This document shows, in pieces, positions 1 to 36,790 of a stretch of DNA of 36,790 bases. The notes under the pieces are model-generated. The model had not been told where the DNA came from. It searched no databases and saw only the letters and a list, made by a program, of their open reading frames with translations. How positions within the stretch are numbered: the stretch's first letter is position 1; each line of letters opens with the position of its first letter. The stretch comes from a virus: IMG/VR virus record IMGVR_UViG_3300028198_000008, positions 1-36,790 of that record, one strand, 5' to 3'. Both the position numbers and the translations under genes were made by a program.

Positions 1-137
1 CGGGGCAGATGCAGGCGCAGCAGGACCGGGACCGTGTCATGGAAGAACGCGAACGGGCAGATCAATCCAGGGCAATGAAGGCGGATATATTCAATACAGC
101 CCCAGGGCACACAATCGGCCCGACTATCGCTGACGGG
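1..137. repeat. Terminal overlap, left copy (circular genome closure)
   Basis: This stretch matches 36654-36790 base for base except one position: A at 89 and T at 36742. The reading frame of the virion gene continues from the right end into the left end, so the contig represents a closed circle or a circularly permuted genome of about 36,653 bp. The substitution changes an ATA codon to ATT, both isoleucine, which fits natural variation in the sampled phage population better than random error. Confidence 0.95.
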
Positions 138-6401: not shown

Positions 6402-6604
6402 TGGACATTCCGACCGAACTGATCGCGGTCGTCTCGCTCGTCGCAGGCTCTATCGTCTGGCTGATCCGGCTCGAAGGCCGGGTGAACACCCATGAGGCCA
6501 TTTGCACGGAGAGATATAGACAACTCCGCGAGCAGCACGTCGAAGCCCTGGACGAGATGCGGCTCATCGAGACCAAACTGGACGGTCTGATTCAACGTCT
6601 GTGA
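6401..6604 (+). CDS. Single-span membrane protein of the lysis cassette
   Basis: 67 residues. Residues 6-23 (LIAVVSLVAGSIVWLIRL) form one transmembrane helix. The remainder is charged and helical, with heptad-like pattern (REQHVEALDEMRLIETKLDG). This architecture, a short N-terminus, one helix and a coiled coil, fits an inner-membrane spanin subunit or a haemolysin XhlA-like accessory. The next gene is an endolysin, which supports a lysis role. ATG at 6401 overlaps the previous stop; a GTG three bases upstream is the alternative. No strong ribosome site, so translation is probably coupled. Confidence 0.65.
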   Translation: MDIPTELIAVVSLVAGSIVWLIRLEGRVNTHEAICTERYRQLREQHVEALDEMRLIETKLDGLIQRL

Positions 6605-6960
6605 TGCCCCTGGCCTATAAACACGGCGTGCGGATCGAACGTCGCACAATGGCGCTATCCCACATGGAATCGTGTGCCCTCGCCACGCAGGAGGAGCTGG
6701 GCTACCCTGACGTGCTGCTAGTGACGAGCGCGAACGACAGCCAGCACACGACCAACAGCCGGCATTACTCAGACGAGGCACTTGACTGGAGGACGAAGGG
6801 GCCATGGGAGAACTCCATGCGGTCCAGGGCCAAGAAGCTGCAATTCAGGAAGCGGTTTGCGGAGCTACTCGGAGACCGGTTTACGGTGATGCTGGAGGGC
6901 AGCGGGAAGGCACATGAGCATCTGCATTCGCAGGTCAAGAAAGGGAGGCGGTATCCATGA
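6604..6960 (+). CDS. Endolysin, M15-type peptidase
   Basis: 118 residues resembling zinc peptidases of the M15 (VanY / L-Ala-D-Glu endopeptidase) group. The signature S-R-H-x4-A-x-D is at residues 52-61 (His54 and Asp61 as zinc ligands), and HEHLHSQ at 104-110 supplies the third ligand and catalytic site. It would cut peptide bonds in peptidoglycan at the end of infection. There is no signal peptide, so export needs a holin; a holin-like protein is encoded two genes downstream. The start overlaps the previous stop (TGATG); GTG at 6601 is possible. Length is at the short end for phage M15 enzymes but all zinc-binding motifs are present. Confidence 0.82.
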   Translation: MPLAYKHGVRIERRTMALSHMESCALATQEELGYPDVLLVTSANDSQHTTNSRHYSDEALDWRTKGPWENSMRSRAKKLQFRKRFAELLGDRFTVMLEGSGKAHEHLHSQVKKGRRYP

Positions 6961-7088
6961 TCAAGAAGACCAAAGGCGGCTTCAAGGTCGTCAGCAAGAA
7001 GGGAAAAGCCCTGAGCAAGCCGGGGTTGAGCAAAGCTGCGGCGAAGAAGCGGTTGGCCCAGGTGGAGCATTTCAAGCGGCAGGGCTGA
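6957..7088 (+). CDS. 43-residue basic protein
   Basis: The ATG overlaps the endolysin stop by ATGA. The product is very basic (many Lys), beginning MIKKTKGGFKVVSKKGKAL and ending VEHFKRQG. Small proteins with the pattern GGFKVVSKK...LSKPGLSKAAAKKRL are recurrent in podovirus genomes; I know no function for them. Tight spacing inside the lysis cassette and a clean reading frame support it as a real gene. Confidence 0.75.
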   Translation: MIKKTKGGFKVVSKKGKALSKPGLSKAAAKKRLAQVEHFKRQG

Positions 7089-7188
7089 CGTGGTCAATCC
7101 GTTCACGTTGCTACGAATCTACGGCCGCATGAGCCGCGTGCTGGGGTTATTCCGGTCCGCGTTCGAGTCATACGAAAAGGAAGGATCT

Positions 7189-7386
7189 ATGAGTAAAAGC
7201 CTATTCACATCCAAGGCGTTTTGGACGAATTTCCTCGCCGCTGCCGTGGAGGTGACCGGCGCACTCTCGGGGGTGATTCCACCCGGTGCGCTCACGCTGC
7301 TCCTTGCCGGCTTCAACGTCGCGATTCGACTCGTCACGAAAGGGCCGGTGCATGTGCTGAACAGTGCGGCCCGTGACGACGAGTAA
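7189..7386 (+). CDS. Putative holin
   Basis: 65 residues from the ATG at 7189, which has a strong AAGGAAGG ribosome site. Residues about 10-30 (WTNFLAAAVEVTGALSGVI) and 33-48 (ALTLLLAGFNVAIRL) are hydrophobic segments, followed by VTKGPVHVLN. The pattern W-x-N...PPG...LL...N-x-x-x-R-x-x-T-K is familiar from small phage holins. In-frame GTG at 7090 would give a 98-residue form with a charged N-terminus; a dual-start holin is conceivable but I prefer the start with the ribosome site. It would permeabilise the inner membrane to release the endolysin. Confidence 0.72.
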   Translation: MSKSLFTSKAFWTNFLAAAVEVTGALSGVIPPGALTLLLAGFNVAIRLVTKGPVHVLNSAARDDE

Positions 7387-7681
7387 GCCTCGTGCGGTCA
7401 TCGCGCTGGTGGCGTTGCTGATTATCGCCCCCTCATGCGATGACCCGCCGCCAGTGGACGTAGACATCGCCGTCATGCGTCGGATGCTCGCTGAGCCGGA
7501 CTGGACGCCGGACGAGTGGGAACGGTGGTGCGACCCGCTCGGTGGTGGCGCGAGCCGGTGCCTGCTGGTTGTTGAACTGTCCTGCCCGCCCGACTGCGGG
7601 GTCTACGTGGCGATGCGCCAGAACCCATTAGCCCGCAGGCTCTCCTCGTCTGCTGCGGCCCTACGCTCGCCCACCCGGTAG
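7373..7681 (+). CDS. Lipoprotein, possible outer-membrane spanin
   Basis: About 102 residues from the GTG at 7373 (an in-frame GTG at 7364 is the alternative). It overlaps the holin-like gene end. A basic N-terminus (TTSKPR) precedes a hydrophobic core (AVIALVALLIIAPS) and a cysteine followed by DDPPPVDVD, as in lipoprotein signal peptides and the proline-rich start of Rz1-type spanins. The lipobox APSC is imperfect. Later it has four more cysteines (WCDPLGGGASRC, SCPPDC). The last codons lie in a 33-bp direct repeat shared with 8674-8706, so the C-terminus may have been changed by recombination. Confidence 0.55.
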   Translation: MTTSKPRAVIALVALLIIAPSCDDPPPVDVDIAVMRRMLAEPDWTPDEWERWCDPLGGGASRCLLVVELSCPPDCGVYVAMRQNPLARRLSSSAAALRSPTR

Positions 7682-7700
7682 GGTCCAGGCGTGCGAGCAG
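7668..7700. repeat. Direct repeat, copy 1, flanking the methyltransferase
   Basis: 33 bases that recur at 8674-8706 with two mismatches. Read leftward this copy encodes [11 protein letters not shown] and then a stop, the same residues as the end of the zinc ribbon at 8646-8801, but the frame has a stop shortly upstream. It therefore looks like a fragment of a duplicated zinc-ribbon gene. The two copies bracket the methyltransferase gene. Confidence 0.85.
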
Positions 7701-7722
7701 TCGGCCCTGACGCGCTACCGCA

Positions 7723-8649
7723 TCAGACAGCGAAGAGCGGCCCTGCTATCCCTTGATCGGCCATCTCCGCGTACTTCGGGTTCAGTTCGATGCCGACGAA
7801 CTCTCGCCCGTGTCTGGCGGCGACGATGCCGGTGGTGCCGCTCCCAGCGAAGGGGTCGAGGATGGTATCGCCTGCCCTACTCCCCGCCTTGATGCACGGC
7901 TCGACCAGCGCCATCGGGAACGTGGCGAAGTGGGCCTCGCTGAACGGCTGCGGGTTGATGGCCCAGACGTTGCGGAGGTTGCGCGTCCCTGAATACGTCG
8001 CGTAGTCAACCCCTCGCCGGTTCCCCTCGCGTGTCCCGCTTCCCTTCGCGGCCTGCGTGCCAGCGGGGAACGTGCCCTGCTCCCGCACCGCCTCCGCGTC
8101 GTAGTAGTACCGCGCCTGCTTCGTCAGCAGGAACACATGCTCATGGCTCTGGGTCGGGCGGTCGGTGCAACTCTCGGGCATGACGCTCCCCGCGTAGGAC
8201 GGGCAGAAACTCAGTCCCTTGGCCCAGATGATGTCGGAGCGGAGGTACCAGCCATCGGCCTGGAGCGCGAGTGCCACGCGGGCGGGGATCATGCACAGGT
8301 CTTTTTGCTTGAGCCCAGCGCCCTGATAGTCCATCTTGGGCTTATTGGATCTGTAGCGCCCTCCGTCCGCTGGCGCGGGCATATCCGGCCCGAAATTACC
8401 AGCGGGGCTGCTCGCGTAACTATCCCCCAGGTTGAGCCAGACCGTCCCATCGTCGCGCAGCACCCGCCGCACCTCGCGGAACACCGCGACCATCGTGGCG
8501 ATGAACGCCTCTGGCGTGGGCTCCAGGCCGATCTGACCCTCGACCCCATAGTCCCGCAGCCCCCAATACGGCGGGCTTGTCACCACGCACTGGACGCTCC
8601 CGGCGTCGAGGGTGGGGAGCACGTCGCGCACATTGCCTGTATGGATCAT
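7723..8649 (-). CDS. DNA methyltransferase (amino-group, N6-A or N4-C)
   Basis: 308 residues from the ATG at 8649, which overlaps the zinc-ribbon stop (ATGA). Catalytic motif IV is TSPPYW at residues 24-29. The SAM-binding motif [11 protein letters not shown], is at about 265-274, so motif IV precedes motif I: the permuted beta-class order. S-P-P-Y fits both N4-cytosine and some N6-adenine enzymes. A longer start at 8715 exists but would overlap the whole C-terminus of the zinc ribbon. It has no neighbouring restriction gene, so it is an orphan enzyme, likely protecting phage DNA or marking it. It is the last gene of the leftward early operon and is flanked by a 33-bp direct repeat, suggesting late acquisition. 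Confidence 0.9.
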
Positions 8650-8801
8650 GGCGTCTTCCCTCGTCCAGCGTCCCGCCCACCCGGTAACGTCCAGGCGTGC
8701 GAGCAGGTCACGCAATACATCTCCGACCGCCCGCCTGTGACGACCACCTCAGTCTGGTAGTCGCCACACTTGGGGCATCGTGGGCCGTCAAGGGGTCGCA
8801 C
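8646..8801 (-). CDS. Zinc-ribbon microprotein
   Basis: 51 residues with two knuckles: CPKCG near residue 9 and CVTC near residue 29, followed by [12 protein letters not shown] start overlaps the end of the upstream 70-residue gene and its stop overlaps the methyltransferase ATG, so all three are coupled. Probably binds nucleic acid or a protein partner. A truncated second copy of its C-terminus lies at 7668-7700. Confidence 0.75.
8674..8706. repeat. Direct repeat, copy 2
   Basis: Second copy of the 33-base repeat (see 7668-7700), inside the zinc-ribbon gene and coding for its [10 protein letters not shown] segment. The repeats share orientation, so homologous recombination between them would delete the methyltransferase together with one repeat copy. 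Confidence 0.85.
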
Positions 8802-9000
8802 GGGAGGTCACCGCCGGGGAATCGAGGATGGCATCGAGTGCGGCCATCTTCGCCAGCAGGTGTCGCGTCTCGGCCTCGTGACCACGCATCGCCGCGAGGT
8901 ACCCGGCCCGCTGCCCTTCAATCTCTGCCACGATGTTCGCGACCGTACGTCGCCCTGCGGGTTCCACGGCCTCTGGGGTATTCACTGCTGCAAGTGTCAT
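8788..9000 (-). CDS. Small helical protein, unknown function
   Basis: 70 residues starting MTLAAVNTPEAVEPAGRRT. The ATG at 9000 has a strong AGGAGGAGAG ribosome site about seven bases upstream, so I prefer it to the longer frame start at 9057. Most of the product (residues 17-60) looks like a single long helix with IVAEIEGQRAGYLAAMRGHE. No motif recognised. It lies between the VRR-NUC nuclease and the zinc ribbon, overlapping the latter's start. Confidence 0.75.
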   Translation of the reverse strand: MTLAAVNTPEAVEPAGRRTVANIVAEIEGQRAGYLAAMRGHEAETRHLLAKMAALDAILDSPAVTSRATP

Positions 9001-9073
9001 ATTCTCTCTCCTCCTGTGTGGTGCTGTGTGCCTACACGATGCGTCTACCAACGTCACGGTTGGAAGTCAGCAT

Positions 9074-9717: not shown

Positions 9718-9836
9718 GGCCGTGACTCTCGATACGCTTCCCAGGCGAGATAGACCGCCAGCAGCGCGAGGAAGCCGAGTCCCCAGCCCACCACGAACCA
9801 CACCAATCGCAGGACCAGCTCAAGCGTTGCGTCCAT
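9714..9836 (-). CDS. 40-residue single-span membrane protein
   Basis: MDATLELVLRLVWFVVGWGL followed by GFLALLAVYLAWEAYRESRP: one strongly hydrophobic helix over about residues 6-31, short charged ends. The start overlaps the stop of the upstream gene (TAATG) and the stop overlaps the next start (ATGA), which strongly supports a real, coupled gene. Expressed from an early operon rather than the lysis cassette, so a host-membrane or exclusion function is as likely as lysis. Confidence 0.75.
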   Translation of the reverse strand: MDATLELVLRLVWFVVGWGLGFLALLAVYLAWEAYRESRP

Positions 9837-10210
9837 TACGACCTCTTGGATCGTGGCTGACCGCGATACGCGCTCGCGCCATCCCAGGACAGCTTGCCGT
9901 TTTTTTCCCGGCAGATGCGTGTGTGATCAGGGATAAACCGGGCCGACCGTTCCTCCCTATCAGCACATGCGACGATGCGATGTTCGATTTCGGTCAGCCA
10001 CTCGACCGGGTCGGCGGCGGTGCCTGAGAGGACCGCACGGCCTGACGCATCAACGGCAAAGCGATGACCATCCCGAGTCGAGCAGTGCCCCTGGGTCGTG
10101 CGGATGACATTCGCCTCGTAAAACTCGCGGACGGTAGTCGCCAAAATCCGACGCGCCTTGGGCGGGGACTTGGGGGGTGCCGTGGTCTTCGCGGTCCTCC
10201 GACGTGCCAT
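9836..10210 (-). CDS. Basic protein of early operon, unknown
   Basis: 124 residues from the ATG at 10210 (MARRRTAKTTAPPKSPPKAR), overlapping the upstream stop as TGATG. The first 25 residues are Arg/Lys/Pro-rich and probably disordered, fitting DNA or RNA contact. The remainder includes ATTVREFYEANVIRTTQGH and WLTEIEHRIVACADREE, a mixed alpha/beta region with no motif I recognise. A longer frame to 10279 is ignored because it invades the upstream gene. Confidence 0.7.
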   Translation of the reverse strand: MARRRTAKTTAPPKSPPKARRILATTVREFYEANVIRTTQGHCSTRDGHRFAVDASGRAVLSGTAADPVEWLTEIEHRIVACADREERSARFIPDHTRICREKNGKLSWDGASAYRGQPRSKRS

Positions 10211-11142: not shown

Positions 11143-11796
11143 ATGGCGTCACCAATTGCATTCGACCCAGAGACGCACCAATACACCACCCCGAACGGCA
11201 CGGTCATCCCGTCCGTCACCCAGCGCATCACAGACGCGGGCCTGCTCGGCTCAGCGGCGAAATTCTACTCACCCGAGAGTGCAGCACGCGGCACCGCCAT
11301 CCACCAAGCGTGTGCCGACCGTGACCACGGCCTGGACGTATCGGACTTTCTCAAGGGCGAGTACGGCGGCTACCTCACGAGCTATATCAAATGGTTTGAG
11401 GTTGTCCAGCCGATATGGACCTCTATCGAGACACCACGATATTCGGCAAAGTACGGCACGGCGGGGACGGCCGACCGGGTCGGGACGTTCGCTGACGGGC
11501 AACCCATGGTCTGTGATCTAAAGTCCGGTGGACGGGCCTCGTGGCACTCGGTGCAATTAGCGCTCTACGACCTGATCCATGACGATCTGCCACCGCGCAA
11601 ACGCCGCCGTATCGTCCTCTATCTGAGAGCCAATGGACGCATGGCCCAGAGCGTCGAGTTTGCCAGTCCGTACGATTACACCCTGGCGCTCAATATGTGC
11701 GCCCCAACCCAGGAGACACCCGATGCCACAGATCACACCGACCCCGCCAGCACCCCAGACCCTGACGATGGACCTACGCCAGCGTCCGGGCATTGA
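11143..11796 (+). CDS. PD-(D/E)XK nuclease (RecB/Cas4-like exonuclease)
   Basis: 217 residues from the ATG at 11143, ten bases after the terminator; the longer frame from 10972 would read through the SSB-like gene and the terminator and is rejected. Core residues of the RecB-type nuclease fold are visible: GTAIH (His54), Glu96, GTADR (Asp111), CDLKSG (Asp125, Lys127) and Q138-L-A-L-Y. Such phage enzymes act as exonucleases in replication or recombination. The C-terminus is a low-complexity Asp/Thr/Pro tail (about 192-217), whose DNA overlaps the start of the next gene. Confidence 0.85.
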   Translation: MASPIAFDPETHQYTTPNGTVIPSVTQRITDAGLLGSAAKFYSPESAARGTAIHQACADRDHGLDVSDFLKGEYGGYLTSYIKWFEVVQPIWTSIETPRYSAKYGTAGTADRVGTFADGQPMVCDLKSGGRASWHSVQLALYDLIHDDLPPRKRRRIVLYLRANGRMAQSVEFASPYDYTLALNMCAPTQETPDATDHTDPASTPDPDDGPTPASGH

Positions 11797-12545: not shown

Positions 12546-14597
12546 ATGACATTCGCTGATCTGCTCTCTCGATTCGACGCGGTGCGGTCCACCGGGTCCG
12601 GCTACAGTGCGAGGTGCCCCGTGCATGAGGACCGCGTCTCTAGCCTCAGTATTTCCCAAGGTGACGACGGACGCGCTCTGATTCATTGTCACGCCGGTTG
12701 CAGTCTGGATGACCTGCTCATGACGCTCGGACTGAGCCTGTCGGACCTGTTTGATGATGACCCCGCGCCTGTGGCCCTGCCCACCCCGAGGCTGACCGCT
12801 GGGTCCAGTACGGAGGCTGTGACCTACGCTTACCATGACCTCGACGGGACGTTACTCCATGAGGTCGTCAAGGGGGCAGGCAAACAGTTCCGGCAGCGGC
12901 ATCCGACCCCCGAGGGCTGGGTCTGGAAGGCATCCGGTCGCCGTGTGCCGTATCGCTGGCCTGAGCTGGTGGGCCAGACCGAGGTGTTTATCTGTGAGGG
13001 CGAGAAGGACGTAGATTGTCTCTTCGACCACGGTCTGACGGCCACCTGCAACCTCGGCGGTGCGTCCAAGTGGCGGGCCGAGGAAACGGCCGCGCTGCTC
13101 GACCTGCACCCGGCACGGGTCTACATCATCCCCGATAATGACACCCCTGGTCGAAAGCACGCTGACAGTGTGCGGGAGCAGCTAACTGCTGCGGGACTGA
13201 CAGCCACGGTTGTGCCGCTCCCCGGACTACCGGCTCACGGCGATGCCAGCGACTGGTTCGCCGCCGGTGGCACGGTCGATGCGTTGCGGTCGCTGGCGGC
13301 TGACCCACCAGACCCTGAGGCGGTGATCGCCACGACCATCGAGGCGGTTGACATACTGACGGCCGAACAGGTGTTCAGCCGCTTGGGTGAGGATGCGTAC
13401 TCCCTGGACTACCCCACGCTGGGGGTGACGTTCTTGGTGTCGCATCTCCACCGTGACCGAGACGACCTGAAGTGTGAGCTGACGGTCAATACCACGCTCC
13501 CGCACGCCCGCACCGTTGACGGCACGTTACTGTGGACCGCCACCAATCTGAGCGCGGCCCGAACACGGGCTGGACTCGCCAAGGGGCTCGCCGCACGGTC
13601 GGGTGAGCCGAAGTGGGATTGGCTATCGGCCTTGGAACGCCTGTCGGTCCTCGTGAGTCGCGCCGAGGCCGAGGGGTCGAGCGAGATCCAACCGCTCGCA
13701 GACTACGACCTCCCCACGGACGACCCGGCCTGGACGATTGCCGGCCTGCCGATCCTGAAGGACCACCCGACGATCCTGTTCGGTGACGGGGGTGCGGCGA
13801 AGTCGTATCTCGCGCTGTATCTCGCTGGCACGATTGCCCGTCAAGTACCGACGATCTTCATTGATTTTGAATTCGAGCCAGAGGCGCACCGGGCCAGACT
13901 CCAACGTCTTTTTGGGGCCGCGATGCCGCAGGGGTTGCACTACGTCCGGTGTAGCCAGCCGCTCGTCACGGAGGTGGGGCGTCTGCAAAAATGGATGCTC
14001 GAATACGGGTGTCGATTCTGCGTGGTGGACTCGATTGCGTTCGCGCTCAATGGCCCGCCGGAATCGGCTGAGGTGGCGGCGGGCTTCTTCCGTTCGCTGC
14101 GGACCCTGAACGTGGGGTCGCTCAGTCTTGCCCACCAGACCAAGGGAGGCGACAACTCTGACAAGACGGTGTTCGGGTCGGCCTTCTATAACAACGGCGC
14201 TCGGAGCGTCTGGCATGTGCGACGGAATGACAATGAGGGGGCCGATTCATCAACCGTCGAGCTAGCCCTCTCCCACCGCAAGTCGAACACCGGCCAAAGG
14301 CTCTCGACCCGAGGCATTAAGTTGGACTTCGCCGGCACAACCACCACCGTTGACACATTCGACCTCGCTGGGAGCGCCGATCTGGCAACCACGCTACCTA
14401 TCTGGCAGCGGGTCAAGTCGCTGGTGTCGCATACCCCTATGACCGTTCCCCAGCTTGCGAGCGAGCTTGATGCTCGACCGGACTCCATCGCACGCACCGT
14501 GCGGAGGATGGATATATTCCGCAAAGACACGTCTGACAGGGTGTGCCTTACTGAGACCACACTAACAGCCCTTGAACCGGACGAAGAGCGATTCTGA
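12546..14597 (+). CDS. Primase-helicase
   Basis: 683 residues combining three modules. Residues 20-55 are a primase zinc finger: CPVH (Cys24, His27) and CHAGC (Cys48, Cys52). Residues about 143-235 are a TOPRIM domain with Glu151 in ICEGEKD and Asp197/Asp199 in IPDND. Residues about 390-600 are a RecA-like ATPase: Walker A GDGGAAKS (413-420), FIDFEFEPE, Walker B-like CVVDSIAFAL, and a LAHQTKG sensor segment. The C-terminus looks like a winged helix (TVPQLASELDARPDSIARTV). It would unwind the origin and prime synthesis for a host polymerase. Iteron-like repeats lie directly upstream. Confidence 0.92.
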   Translation: MTFADLLSRFDAVRSTGSGYSARCPVHEDRVSSLSISQGDDGRALIHCHAGCSLDDLLMTLGLSLSDLFDDDPAPVALPTPRLTAGSSTEAVTYAYHDLDGTLLHEVVKGAGKQFRQRHPTPEGWVWKASGRRVPYRWPELVGQTEVFICEGEKDVDCLFDHGLTATCNLGGASKWRAEETAALLDLHPARVYIIPDNDTPGRKHADSVREQLTAAGLTATVVPLPGLPAHGDASDWFAAGGTVDALRSLAADPPDPEAVIATTIEAVDILTAEQVFSRLGEDAYSLDYPTLGVTFLVSHLHRDRDDLKCELTVNTTLPHARTVDGTLLWTATNLSAARTRAGLAKGLAARSGEPKWDWLSALERLSVLVSRAEAEGSSEIQPLADYDLPTDDPAWTIAGLPILKDHPTILFGDGGAAKSYLALYLAGTIARQVPTIFIDFEFEPEAHRARLQRLFGAAMPQGLHYVRCSQPLVTEVGRLQKWMLEYGCRFCVVDSIAFALNGPPESAEVAAGFFRSLRTLNVGSLSLAHQTKGGDNSDKTVFGSAFYNNGARSVWHVRRNDNEGADSSTVELALSHRKSNTGQRLSTRGIKLDFAGTTTTVDTFDLAGSADLATTLPIWQRVKSLVSHTPMTVPQLASELDARPDSIARTVRRMDIFRKDTSDRVCLTETTLTALEPDEERF

Positions 14598-14599
14598 CT

Positions 14600-15589
14600 A
14601 TGGACATTCTCCTACTGCAACTCGACGGGAAACTCCCGAATCTGGCCCTGATGCGTTTGGCCGCGCATCACCGCTCCCAGCATGATCAGGTCATCCTGCG
14701 GCGATCAGGCAATCTGTCAGCCGTAGAACCCCACCTCGGAGATCCGGCATGGGATCAGGTGTATGCCTCGTTGATTTTTGAGCGCACGCGCCCTCTTGCT
14801 GAGCGGGTCCGTGTCATGTATCCCGATGCCCTCGTCGGGGGGACAGGCTATGACATTGGGCGGTCCCTGGAAGACATTGGCGTGCCGTCGTATGGTGCGA
14901 TGGATTATACCGATTACCCCCGATGGACCTCGTCGCTGGGATTCACGCAGCGCGGGTGTCGTCTCCGGTGTAGCTTTTGCGTGGTTCCCGTGAAGGAGGG
15001 GCGCGTGCGCGAGGAGCAGACGATTGACGATCTGTGGCGCGGTGACCCCTGGCCGCGTCACCTGTTGCTGCTGGACAATGATTTTTTTGGTCAGCCTCAC
15101 TGGGATCAACGGGTGCAGGAAATACAAGCGGGGCGCTTTAAGGTGTCATTTAATCAGGGGATCAATGCGCGGATGTTGACCGACGAAACCGCTGCGGCGA
15201 TTGGGAGCGTGGACTACCGTGATGACTCGATGAAAACGAAACGCATCTATACAGCATGGGACAACCAGAAGGACGAAGCGCGGCTCTTTAAGGGCCTTGA
15301 AGCCCTAATCAAGTACGGCGTGAAGCCCTCTCATATCATGGTGTATATCCTGATCGGGTATTGGCCTGGGGAAACCCACGCAGAACGAGATCACCGCAGG
15401 AAAAAGTTACGCGAGTTTGGATGCATACCCTATCCGATGCCCTACACGCGCACCGCTGAACTAGTGGGGTTCCAGCGGTGGGTGATCGGCGCATACGATA
15501 AGAGCGTGCCGTGGTCAGCGTGGTCCCGTGCGCGGTATCAGCCTGCAAATTTGCAATTGTATGCCCAAAAATCTGCCCTTCCGTTCTAA
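14600..15589 (+). CDS. Radical SAM enzyme
   Basis: 329 residues starting two bases after the primase-helicase stop, so in the same operon. GCRLRCSFC at 119-127 gives Cys120, Cys124 and Cys127, the CxxxCxxC motif that ligates a 4Fe-4S cluster for cleaving S-adenosylmethionine. The first 115 residues resemble a degenerate B12-binding/Rossmann-like domain (MDILLLQLDGKLPNLALMRL; PDALVGGTGYDIG), as in YgiQ/MiaB-related B12-type enzymes. After the motif come barrel-like strands: HLLLLDNDFFG, VSFNQGINARML, IMVYILIGYW. The substrate is unknown; co-transcription with replication genes favours nucleotide or nucleic acid modification. Confidence 0.85.
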   Translation: MDILLLQLDGKLPNLALMRLAAHHRSQHDQVILRRSGNLSAVEPHLGDPAWDQVYASLIFERTRPLAERVRVMYPDALVGGTGYDIGRSLEDIGVPSYGAMDYTDYPRWTSSLGFTQRGCRLRCSFCVVPVKEGRVREEQTIDDLWRGDPWPRHLLLLDNDFFGQPHWDQRVQEIQAGRFKVSFNQGINARMLTDETAAAIGSVDYRDDSMKTKRIYTAWDNQKDEARLFKGLEALIKYGVKPSHIMVYILIGYWPGETHAERDHRRKKLREFGCIPYPMPYTRTAELVGFQRWVIGAYDKSVPWSAWSRARYQPANLQLYAQKSALPF

Positions 15590-24618: not shown

Positions 24619-27095
24619 CGAGTGATATGGTGCAGGCGTTGGACCGCTTCAAAGTCGGGTCGGATGCCGACATTGACCAGCGCAAACGTGAGGTCGATGC
24701 GCTCAGATTCCAGGTGCCCGAGTTCTGCTGGCCGACCGAGGTCAAAGACCAGCGCAAGCCGCAGATCATCGGCGGGGTGGCTATTCCACAACGGCCGATG
24801 CTGAGTATTCCCAGTCTCGACCACCCCATCCAGCTCGTGCTCAACGCCGAAAAGGGCGCACATCTAGGCGTGGGCATCCACCCGCTCAGCGATGATGCCG
24901 AAGAAGAGACCGCCGAAGTGCTCCAGGGGCTCTATCGACGGATTGAGGTCCAAAGTCGCGCCAGTTTGGCCCGGTCCTGGGCGTTTGAGCGGGCCGTGAA
25001 AGCCGGTCGGGGCTATTACCGTGTCGTGACCGAGCCTGACCCCGACAGTGACGACGCCTATGACCAGAAAATCGTCATCAAGCGCATTCTCCAGCAGGGG
25101 AGTGTCGTCTTGGACCCGTTTGCCCAGGAAGCCGACTGCTCAGACGGCGAGTGGGCCTTTGTGGTCAACGACATGCCGTGGGAGAGCTACAAACGACGGT
25201 ATCCCAAGTCTGCGATGGCTGCGTACAGCGAGGAAGAACTCTCGGCAGTCGGGATTTCCACGCCGTCCTGGGTCTCGGGCGATGAAGGCGCGTCCAGAGC
25301 GGTCCGGGTCGCTGAATACTACCGCCTGGAGTACACCCACTCGCGGAAAGTGCTGCTTGATGACGGCTCAGAGGCCGATGAGGATGACATTCCCGAGGGA
25401 CGCACCGCCCGAGAAGGCGCTGAGGCCCGCGACCGGATGGAAAGCACGCCGACCCTCTACTGGAGCACGATTAACGCCGTGGAGGAGCTGGAACCGAAAC
25501 AGGAGATGGACGGGCGCTATATCCCAGTCATTCCGGTCATCGGGCGCGAACTGATTCCGTTCGAGCAGGACCGACGCTTTGTGGGGATGATTGAGCCGAA
25601 CAAAGACGCCGTGCGTCTGCTCAATTATGCCTCGTCGTCGGCCGTCGAGATGGCGAGTCTGGAGACCAAAGCGCCCTACATGATGGTCGAAGGCCAGGAA
25701 GAGGGCCACGAGCAGGAATGGCAACTCGCCAACGTGCGGAACTTCCCGTATCTGCGCTATAGCCCGGTCAGCCTCAATGGTGTTGCCGCCCCACCCCCGC
25801 AACGCACGCAGGTGGACGCCTCACGGCTGGGGCCGAGCATGTTGCTGCTCCAGCAGGCGAGGGAATTTATCCATGAAGGCACCGGGGCGTTTGAATCCGC
25901 GCTGGGACAGGAAACCACGAGTGCGAAGTCTGGGAAGGCCATTCTCGCACTGCAAAACCAGCACGACAGCGGCAGCAGCCATTTTATCGACAATTTGGCC
26001 GAAATCAGCCTGACCTACGAGGCCAAGGTCGTCTTGGACCTGATTCCGCACATTTATGACCGTCCTGGCCGGATCGCACGCATTCTCGACCTGGAAGATG
26101 AAGCCAAAACGGTCATGTTGAACGCGCCATTTCGGCGTGACCCGGGTACACAACGCCCTATTCCCGCCGGACCCCCCGCACTGGGTCCAGGGGGACCGAT
26201 GGGCAACGGAGGGCCACCGATGGGTCCGGCCGGACCCCCGATGCGCCCCGGCGCGGCCCTCGTGCCTCCTGGGGCACCGCCGATGGGACCGGGTGGTCCG
26301 CCTATGGCTCCCGGTGGCCCTCCGATGCCACCAGGGATGCACAGAATGCCCGATGGCAGCATGATGCCGGGCGCACAGCATCCGCGCAACGCTGTCGAGC
26401 ACTACGACCTGAAAAAAGGGCGCTACGGCATCACCGTCACGATTGGACGCAGCTACAAGAGCCGACGTGAAGAGGGTGCGGACGAGATGGGACAGTTGTT
26501 CCGGGCAAATCCCAGCCTGTTCCCGATTTTGGGCGATATTTACCTCAAATTCCGTGATTTCCCCGGTCATCTGGAAGCTTCAGAGCGCGTCAAGAAGATG
26601 CTGCCGCCGCCCTTGCAGGATGAGGCAGACGGGCCAGATCCTCAGATGCTCCAGCAGCAGATCCAAGAATCTGGACAAATGGTCGAGCAGCTCACCAAGG
26701 CGCTGGACGAAAAGACCCAACTGATCGAGCAGGAGGGGCAGAAGCTCCAGGCGCAGGCGCAACGGTCGCAGATGGACAATCAAGCCAAGATCGAAATCGA
26801 GCGGATGCGTATCGAGATCGAGCGGATGCGGAACGAGACCGAATTGACCATCACGGCCATGAAAATCAAGGCTGATGAGGCCGAGGCTAAGCTCAAGTCC
26901 GACACGCGGCTTGCAGAATCCGAACTGTCGAGCAATACCAAGATGCTGCACGATGTCACCGAACACGAGCACATTGAGGAAATGGCCGCGAGAGACACGA
27001 TGAACGAGGTCGCTAAAGAGGTCCGAGAGACCGAGGCAAACCAGCCGGCGACGGTGCTGTCGATTGATATGACGCCGATTGATGAGGGTCAGTGA
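24615..27095 (+). CDS. Portal protein, P22-like, with collagen-like insert
   Basis: 826 residues. The N-terminal 450 residues follow the P22-type portal plan (GYYRVVTEPDPDSDDAYDQK; VVLDPFAQEADCSDGEWAFV; MPWESYKRRYP). Twelve copies form the DNA entry vertex. Residues about 516-575 are a Gly/Pro/Met tract with GPPMGP and GGPP units, collagen-like in composition and unusual here. After it, from about 665 to 800, comes a long Gln/Glu-rich helix (EIERMRIEIERMRNETELTI), the counterpart of the P22 portal barrel. It is about 100 residues longer than the 725-residue P22 portal. Confidence 0.92.
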   Translation: MTSDMVQALDRFKVGSDADIDQRKREVDALRFQVPEFCWPTEVKDQRKPQIIGGVAIPQRPMLSIPSLDHPIQLVLNAEKGAHLGVGIHPLSDDAEEETAEVLQGLYRRIEVQSRASLARSWAFERAVKAGRGYYRVVTEPDPDSDDAYDQKIVIKRILQQGSVVLDPFAQEADCSDGEWAFVVNDMPWESYKRRYPKSAMAAYSEEELSAVGISTPSWVSGDEGASRAVRVAEYYRLEYTHSRKVLLDDGSEADEDDIPEGRTAREGAEARDRMESTPTLYWSTINAVEELEPKQEMDGRYIPVIPVIGRELIPFEQDRRFVGMIEPNKDAVRLLNYASSSAVEMASLETKAPYMMVEGQEEGHEQEWQLANVRNFPYLRYSPVSLNGVAAPPPQRTQVDASRLGPSMLLLQQAREFIHEGTGAFESALGQETTSAKSGKAILALQNQHDSGSSHFIDNLAEISLTYEAKVVLDLIPHIYDRPGRIARILDLEDEAKTVMLNAPFRRDPGTQRPIPAGPPALGPGGPMGNGGPPMGPAGPPMRPGAALVPPGAPPMGPGGPPMAPGGPPMPPGMHRMPDGSMMPGAQHPRNAVEHYDLKKGRYGITVTIGRSYKSRREEGADEMGQLFRANPSLFPILGDIYLKFRDFPGHLEASERVKKMLPPPLQDEADGPDPQMLQQQIQESGQMVEQLTKALDEKTQLIEQEGQKLQAQAQRSQMDNQAKIEIERMRIEIERMRNETELTITAMKIKADEAEAKLKSDTRLAESELSSNTKMLHDVTEHEHIEEMAARDTMNEVAKEVRETEANQPATVLSIDMTPIDEGQ

Positions 27096-36464: not shown

Positions 36465-36790
36465 TGCCGTTTAGGTATACGCCCAACCAGAACCGCTACG
36501 TCGGATCCATTGCCGACCTGATGGGTCGTGGGAATGACGCGGAAGCCCAAGCCCTGATCGCCTCGGCCAATGCCCAGGCCCGAGCCGCCCAGGCCAGCGG
36601 ACAGGCGTGGGGCGGGGCCGTGCAGGGCATTGGCAATACCATCGCGGCGATACCGGGGCAGATGCAGGCGCAGCAGGACCGGGACCGTGTCATGGAAGAA
36701 CGCGAACGGGCAGATCAATCCAGGGCAATGAAGGCGGATATTTTCAATACAGCCCCAGGGCACACAATCGGCCCGACTATCGCTGACGGG
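36464..36790 (+). CDS. Internal virion protein, 5' part of the gene spanning the ends
   Basis: Start codon at 36464 overlapping the previous stop. The frame MPFRYTPNQNRYVGSIADLM goes on through an Ala-rich helix and continues in the same frame into 3-1790. Joined length is about 659 residues. See the entry at 3-1790 for the rest. A downstream M at position 9 is only an internal methionine. Confidence 0.9.
   Translation, partial: MPFRYTPNQNRYVGSIADLMGRGNDAEAQALIASANAQARAAQASGQAWGGAVQGIGNTIAAIPGQMQAQQDRDRVMEERERADQSRAMKADIFNTAPGHTIGPTIADG
36654..36790. repeat. Terminal overlap, right copy
   Basis: Repeats 1-137 with one substitution (T at 36742, A at 89). See the left copy. Confidence 0.95.

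What the first reader, a model, noticed from the sequence alone, without database searches (positions are those of the whole stretch)
7668..8706. Methyltransferase bracketed by a 33-bp direct repeat carrying a zinc-ribbon fragment
Repeats at 7668-7700 and 8674-8706 match with two mismatches. The outer copy codes for the same [11 protein letters not shown] end as the zinc-ribbon gene but the frame is broken just upstream, so it is a remnant. The methyltransferase lies between. This looks like insertion of the methyltransferase with duplication of the flank, or a past tandem duplication. Recombination between the repeats would delete the gene cleanly, giving a switchable module.
Basis: partly seen in the sequence, partly recalled or inferred. 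Interest (0 to 1): 0.7.

Follow-up and report, generated by a model that had tools for sequence, protein, structure and literature searches.

The report
Phage methyltransferase insertion with flank duplication
A phage has gained a single DNA-methyltransferase gene between two genes whose ends overlapped, and a 33-base stretch was duplicated so that both neighbours kept their ends; a sister phage without the gene shows the empty site with one copy.

Summary
7668-7700 and 8674-8706 match 31/33 and flank one complete N4/N6 DNA-methyltransferase gene (8649..7723, - strand). Leaving out one copy plus the 973 bp between gives a gap-free 395-bp alignment to it. Six more zinc-ribbon-bearing relatives also lack a methyltransferase 3' to the zinc ribbon, so gain is likelier than loss. 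In the sister, the zinc-ribbon gene and a convergent small gene overlap tail to tail by 21 bp inside a strong hairpin. In the window the outer copy keeps the small gene's end; the inner copy keeps the zinc ribbon, whose new tail comes from the insert and whose TGA overlaps the methyltransferase ATG. The 'remnant' is therefore the severed native end, not a decayed second zinc ribbon. 'Switchable module' is not shown: no population variants seen, no recombinase recognised. Deletion between short direct repeats remains plausible. Most likely a moron-type insertion by illegitimate recombination at a methyltransferase-rich variable slot beside the lysis genes.

The parts
7668..7700 (.). Outer copy of the 33-bp direct repeat. 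On + it holds the last codons and TAG stop (7679-7681) of the convergent small gene; on - it still encodes the old zinc-ribbon end [12 protein letters not shown].
8674..8706 (.). Inner copy of the 33-bp direct repeat, inside the intact zinc-ribbon gene.
7701..8673 (-). 973 bp absent from the sister phage; with one repeat copy the gain is 1006 bp. GC 66.4% against about 61% in the flanks.
7723..8649 (-). Complete N4/N6 DNA methyltransferase gene (PF01555, phrog_67), with motifs TSPPYW and DPFAGSGTT; highest GC3 (0.84) of 25 genes sampled.
8646..8801 (-). Small zinc-ribbon gene (51 aa). Its last eight residues (DAGRGKTP) come from the insert; its TGA overlaps the methyltransferase ATG (ATGA, 8649-8646).
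7364..7681 (+). Convergent small gene on the lysis side, possibly a spanin-like lipoprotein (no family match; inference from position and a hydrophobic N-terminus followed by Cys). Its end lies in the outer repeat copy.
7656..7706 (-). Strong hairpin formed by the outer copy and its flank (RNA -34.3 kcal/mol, z -4.6). The same hairpin is at the sister's empty site (z -4.7); the inner copy is weaker (z -1.7).
7090..7386 (+). Small gene of the lysis-side group (holin-like by position only), conserved in G001, G002 and G003; landmark for the site.
8788..9000 (-). Small gene upstream of the zinc ribbon. In G003 its N-terminal part is fused to another N4/N6 methyltransferase.

Best explanation
A moron-type gain of one gene. 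A methyltransferase with its own ribosome-binding leader entered at the junction where the leftward small-gene operon (ending in the zinc ribbon) met the rightward lysis genes tail to tail, with their ends overlapping by 21 bp inside a hairpin. The join duplicated 33 bp of the target, so each neighbour kept an intact end: the outer copy closes the lysis-side gene, the inner copy sits in the zinc ribbon, which gained a new eight-residue tail and an ATGA overlap with the methyltransferase. Shown: single-copy empty site, exact boundaries, intact genes, absence of the gene in relatives at this spot. Inferred: the direction (gain), the route (illegitimate recombination or template switching during phage replication, possibly favoured by the hairpin) and the role of the enzyme (methylating phage DNA to evade host restriction, the role usually proposed for solitary phage methyltransferases).
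For: Window 6435-7700 and 8674-9068 align to adjoining parts of L016 that share exactly the 33 bp; leaving out one copy plus insert gives 395 bp aligned with no gap. The native genes overlap by 21 bp in the sister. Six further zinc-ribbon-bearing records lack a methyltransferase 3' to the zinc ribbon. Insert richer in GC, methyltransferase with the highest GC3 sampled. Both copies share an A where the sister has G, which suits a local duplication. Thirteen loci with methyltransferase relatives lack this zinc ribbon, so the second copy probably did not come with the donor. Different methyltransferases recur at this slot in relatives.
Against: Only one relative is close enough to show an exact empty site, and it is a single metagenome contig. 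The donor is unknown (best viral matches about 53-56% identical). A 33-bp duplication is long for illegitimate joining, and no step of the mechanism was observed. Reads were not available, so an assembly error cannot be fully excluded, although the two copies differ at two bases.
Confidence: 0.75

Rival explanations
1. The occupied state is ancestral to the pair, and G001 lost the methyltransferase by recombination between the two 33-bp copies.
For: Such a deletion would give exactly the G001 sequence. Nearby, a 14-bp direct repeat brackets a gene present in G001 and absent in the window (about 0.1% by chance).
Against: Six other zinc-ribbon-bearing records lack a methyltransferase there, and the origin of the repeat would still need an insertion earlier. 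Insert composition is that of a newcomer.
Confidence: 0.15
2. A switchable module: within a population the gene is repeatedly deleted and regained through the repeats.
For: The anatomy permits clean deletion with both neighbours left intact.
Against: No population variants seen, no recombinase recognised; regain after deletion would need an outside donor. The only exact empty site is in a phage that is clearly divergent.
Confidence: 0.04
3. Site-specific integration of a cassette by an integrase acting in trans (attL/attR-like copies, or an integron-type cassette).
For: Insertion at the 3' end of a gene with an identity block that restores the end resembles integration into gene ends; a hairpin is present at the site.
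Against: No integrase in the proteins scanned; the motif is found nowhere else in the window; I saw no attC-type core motifs in the repeat or next to the methyltransferase stop (reading).
Confidence: 0.04
4. Remnant of a tandem duplication of the whole zinc-ribbon gene.
For: The outer copy encodes the zinc-ribbon C-terminus.
Against: No similarity beyond the 33 bp on either side; the outer [12 protein letters not shown] is the native end shared with the convergent gene; relatives were found with one such zinc ribbon each.
Confidence: 0.02

Closest known systems
Phage morons (single genes inserted between conserved phage genes; general knowledge)
   Same: One complete foreign gene between genes that adjoin in a relative, of different composition, with no transposase.
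   Different: No own promoter or canonical terminator found; the gene is on the operon's strand and coupled to the zinc ribbon; a 33-bp target duplication preserves two overlapping genes.
PeSL mobile regulatory cassettes of T4-like phages (Arbiol et al. 2010, Comeau et al. 2014; seen only as citations in PMC4503421, the papers are not held)
   Same: Repeated stem-loop sequences at gene borders linked to gene shuffling.
   Different: Here the stem-loop sequence occurs only at this one site, no promoter was found, and the copies arose with the insertion.
Integron gene cassettes in phages (PMC9892861)
   Same: Single genes gained as units, hairpin-type sites.
   Different: No integron integrase recognised, no attC core motifs seen.
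Solitary phage N4/N6 DNA methyltransferases (phrog_67; e.g. the genes of Methanoculleus virus Blf4 and Bordetella phage PHB04)
   Same: Same family, related at DNA level over parts of the gene.
   Different: Only about 53-56% identical to the best viral matches; different neighbours.

Membership tests
PF01555 N6/N4 DNA methyltransferase | Match over the family's curated cut-off | tested here: met
   162.7 bits against a cut-off of 26.7
PF01555 N6/N4 DNA methyltransferase | Catalytic and cofactor motifs present in an uninterrupted gene | tested here: met
   TSPPYW and DPFAGSGTT in a 308-aa open frame
PF01555 N6/N4 DNA methyltransferase | Methylates DNA at a defined site | not testable with these tools
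   needs expression and base mapping
Phage moron | Single gene absent from a relative in which the neighbours adjoin | tested here: met
Phage moron | Different base composition from the neighbours | tested here: met
   66.4% GC against about 61%; GC3 0.84, the highest of 25 genes; a modest difference
Phage moron | Own promoter and terminator | tested here: inconclusive
   none by consensus scan, which does not cover all promoter types; a small hairpin follows the stop
Transposon or insertion sequence | Transposase gene in the insert | tested here: not met
   the insert holds only the methyltransferase
Transposon or insertion sequence | Terminal inverted repeats | tested here: not met
   none reported at the insert ends
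Integron gene cassette | Integron integrase in the phage | tested here: inconclusive
   none among the proteins scanned; not every reading frame was scanned
Integron gene cassette | attC site after the gene | tested here: inconclusive
   hairpin present but no RYYYAAC/GTTRRRY core seen by eye; no dedicated attC search was run
PeSL-type shuffling cassette | The same stem-loop repeated at several gene borders | tested here: not met
   only the two copies in the window

The most novel reading that the evidence does not exclude
Single genes in this phage group are gained and lost through a recurrent process that leaves direct target duplications of variable length (33 bp and 14 bp here), favoured at convergent hairpin junctions, which lets a gene be inserted where two genes overlap and later be removed cleanly.
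Probability: 0.12. Interest if true: 0.6.

Novelty: new member of a known kind. Interest (0 to 1): 0.4.

Why it matters
It is an unusually clean before/after pair for single-gene gain in an uncultivated phage. It shows how a gene can enter between overlapping, convergent genes without breaking either, because the junction is duplicated. It also marks the slot beside the lysis genes as one where methyltransferases of different families recur in relatives, which would fit repeated pressure from host restriction.

Tried and rejected
(1) The 20-base core of the repeat in viral contigs gave one match (L001), in an unrelated gene: chance. (2) Extension of the repeat into a longer decayed zinc-ribbon copy: gapped alignments no better than shuffles. 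(3) More occupied or empty sites through the zinc ribbon, the nuclease-like gene, the lysis-gene alignment and the holin-like alignment: only G001 is close; G003, G002 and others are distant. (4) Methyltransferase relatives in genome contigs: none confirmed. (5) Among 37 related records, three hold partial matches to other methyltransferases and the rest none. (6) Canonical promoters or terminators: none. (7) L129 and L130 as further junctions: L129 has another arrangement, L130 resembles G014. (8) Literature searches found no description of this arrangement; the two PeSL papers are not held, and PMC4503421 mentions no repeats in its deletion case.

Full report
What the window is. The window is a whole virus record of 36,790 bp whose ends overlap by 137 bp with one mismatch, so it is probably a complete genome. 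Terminase, portal and major head protein families are recognisable. Terminase relatives are numerous in viral contigs, while the best named phage, EBPR podovirus 1, is only 48% identical in the terminase.

The observation. The 33-bp direct repeat is real: 7668-7700 and 8674-8706, 31/33 identical, found only at these two places and not expected by chance. Similarity stops at the edges on both sides. Between the copies lies one complete methyltransferase gene on the - strand (8649..7723; PF01555, 162.7 bits; phrog_67; best sequence match among solved structures 2zie, a putative modification methylase).

The empty site. A search with the zinc-ribbon protein found one close relative, IMGVR_UViG_3300031646_000022 (L016 = G001, 21,136 bp). 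It is collinear with the window over most of its length. Window 6435-7700 aligns to L016 5349-4072 and window 8674-9068 to L016 4104-3720; the two alignments share L016 4072-4104, exactly one copy of the 33 bp. When one copy and the 973 bp between are left out of the window, the remaining 395 bp align to G001 without a gap (36 or 37 mismatches). No methyltransferase homologue is present in the 21 kb of G001 that is held; the rest of that genome is missing.

Anatomy of the site. In G001 the zinc-ribbon gene ends ...[12 protein letters not shown] and the convergent small gene ends ...RSPAR*; their 3' ends overlap by 21 bp. A simple insertion inside that overlap would cut at least one of them. 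In the window the outer copy keeps the end of the convergent gene (...RSPTR*) and, passively, the old zinc-ribbon end. The inner copy keeps the zinc ribbon, which now runs into the insert and ends ...[11 protein letters not shown]. Its TGA overlaps the ATG of the methyltransferase (ATGA, 8649-8646). The tail after the last cysteine pair varies among relatives, so a changed tail should be tolerated.

Hairpin. On the - strand the outer copy with its flank folds into a strong stem-loop (z -4.6), and so does the empty site of G001 (z -4.7); the inner copy is weaker (z -1.7), because part of one arm lies outside the duplicated 33 bp. The three positions that vary among the three copies are two in the loop and one that changes G-U to G-C. 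There is no U tract and no canonical terminator, so a role as a convergent terminator is only a suggestion. If it were one, weakening of the inner hairpin would allow read-through from the zinc ribbon into the methyltransferase; this is inference.

Direction. Besides G001, records with the zinc ribbon but no methyltransferase 3' to it are G002 and G003, L029 and L087 (L087 was not listed separately but has the same spacing), G011 and G014. This favours gain in the window's lineage. Composition agrees: the insert has 66.4% GC against about 61% nearby, and the methyltransferase has the highest GC3 of 25 genes sampled (0.84). Both copies share an A where G001 has G, which suits a local duplication. 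The 13 viral loci with methyltransferase relatives lack this zinc ribbon, so the second copy probably did not come with the donor.

A methyltransferase-rich slot. In G003, upstream of the zinc ribbon, lie a C5 methyltransferase (L104 16423..15392) and an N4/N6 methyltransferase whose N-terminus resembles the 8788-9000 protein of the window (L104 17687..16368). In G014 a Dam-type gene directly precedes the zinc ribbon. In G006 and G007 a Dam-type gene lies within about 0.45 kb of the holin-like gene. Different methyltransferases therefore recur at the end of this operon beside the lysis genes.

Mechanism. No integrase, transposase or homing endonuclease family was recognised among the proteins scanned, the insert has no terminal inverted repeats, and the repeat is not found at other sites. 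The simplest route is illegitimate recombination or template switching during phage replication, re-entering 33 bp behind the exit point, and kept because both genes survive. The phage encodes a protein of exonuclease families (11143-11793), which would fit annealing at short homologies; this is inference. Loss by recombination between the copies is possible: about 350 bp to the right, a 14-bp direct repeat brackets a gene present in G001 and absent in the window (about 0.1% by chance). Nothing here shows that the module switches within a population.

Verdict. Observation confirmed; insertion with flank duplication supported; switchable module not shown. A new and unusually clean example of a known kind of event.

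Noticed in passing
window 9055-9068; L016 3480-3774: A 14-bp direct repeat (13/14) brackets most of a 99-aa CxxC-containing gene in G001; the window has one copy and a short leftover frame (MLTSNR...), which looks like a deletion between the repeats.
   Followed up: partly
window 14600-15589: A radical SAM family gene (phrog_9298) is present in the window and absent from G001, with a clean join at the stop codon of the primase-like gene and only about 4 bp (TTCT) shared at the ends.
   Followed up: partly
L016 1906-2715: G001 carries a phosphoadenosine-phosphosulfate-reductase-like gene (phrog_424) where the window has about 36 bp (9827-9864).
   Followed up: partly
L104 16368-17687: In G003 the N-terminal part of the 8788-9000 small protein is fused to an N4/N6 DNA methyltransferase.
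   Followed up: no
G005 26427-26843 and G007 13489-13941: The Dam-type methyltransferase matches in these two relatives each contain one in-frame TGA: decayed genes, sequencing errors or recoding.
   Followed up: no
window 1-137 and 36654-36790: The two ends of the record overlap by 137 bp with one mismatch, as expected of a complete, circularly closed or terminally redundant genome.
   Followed up: no
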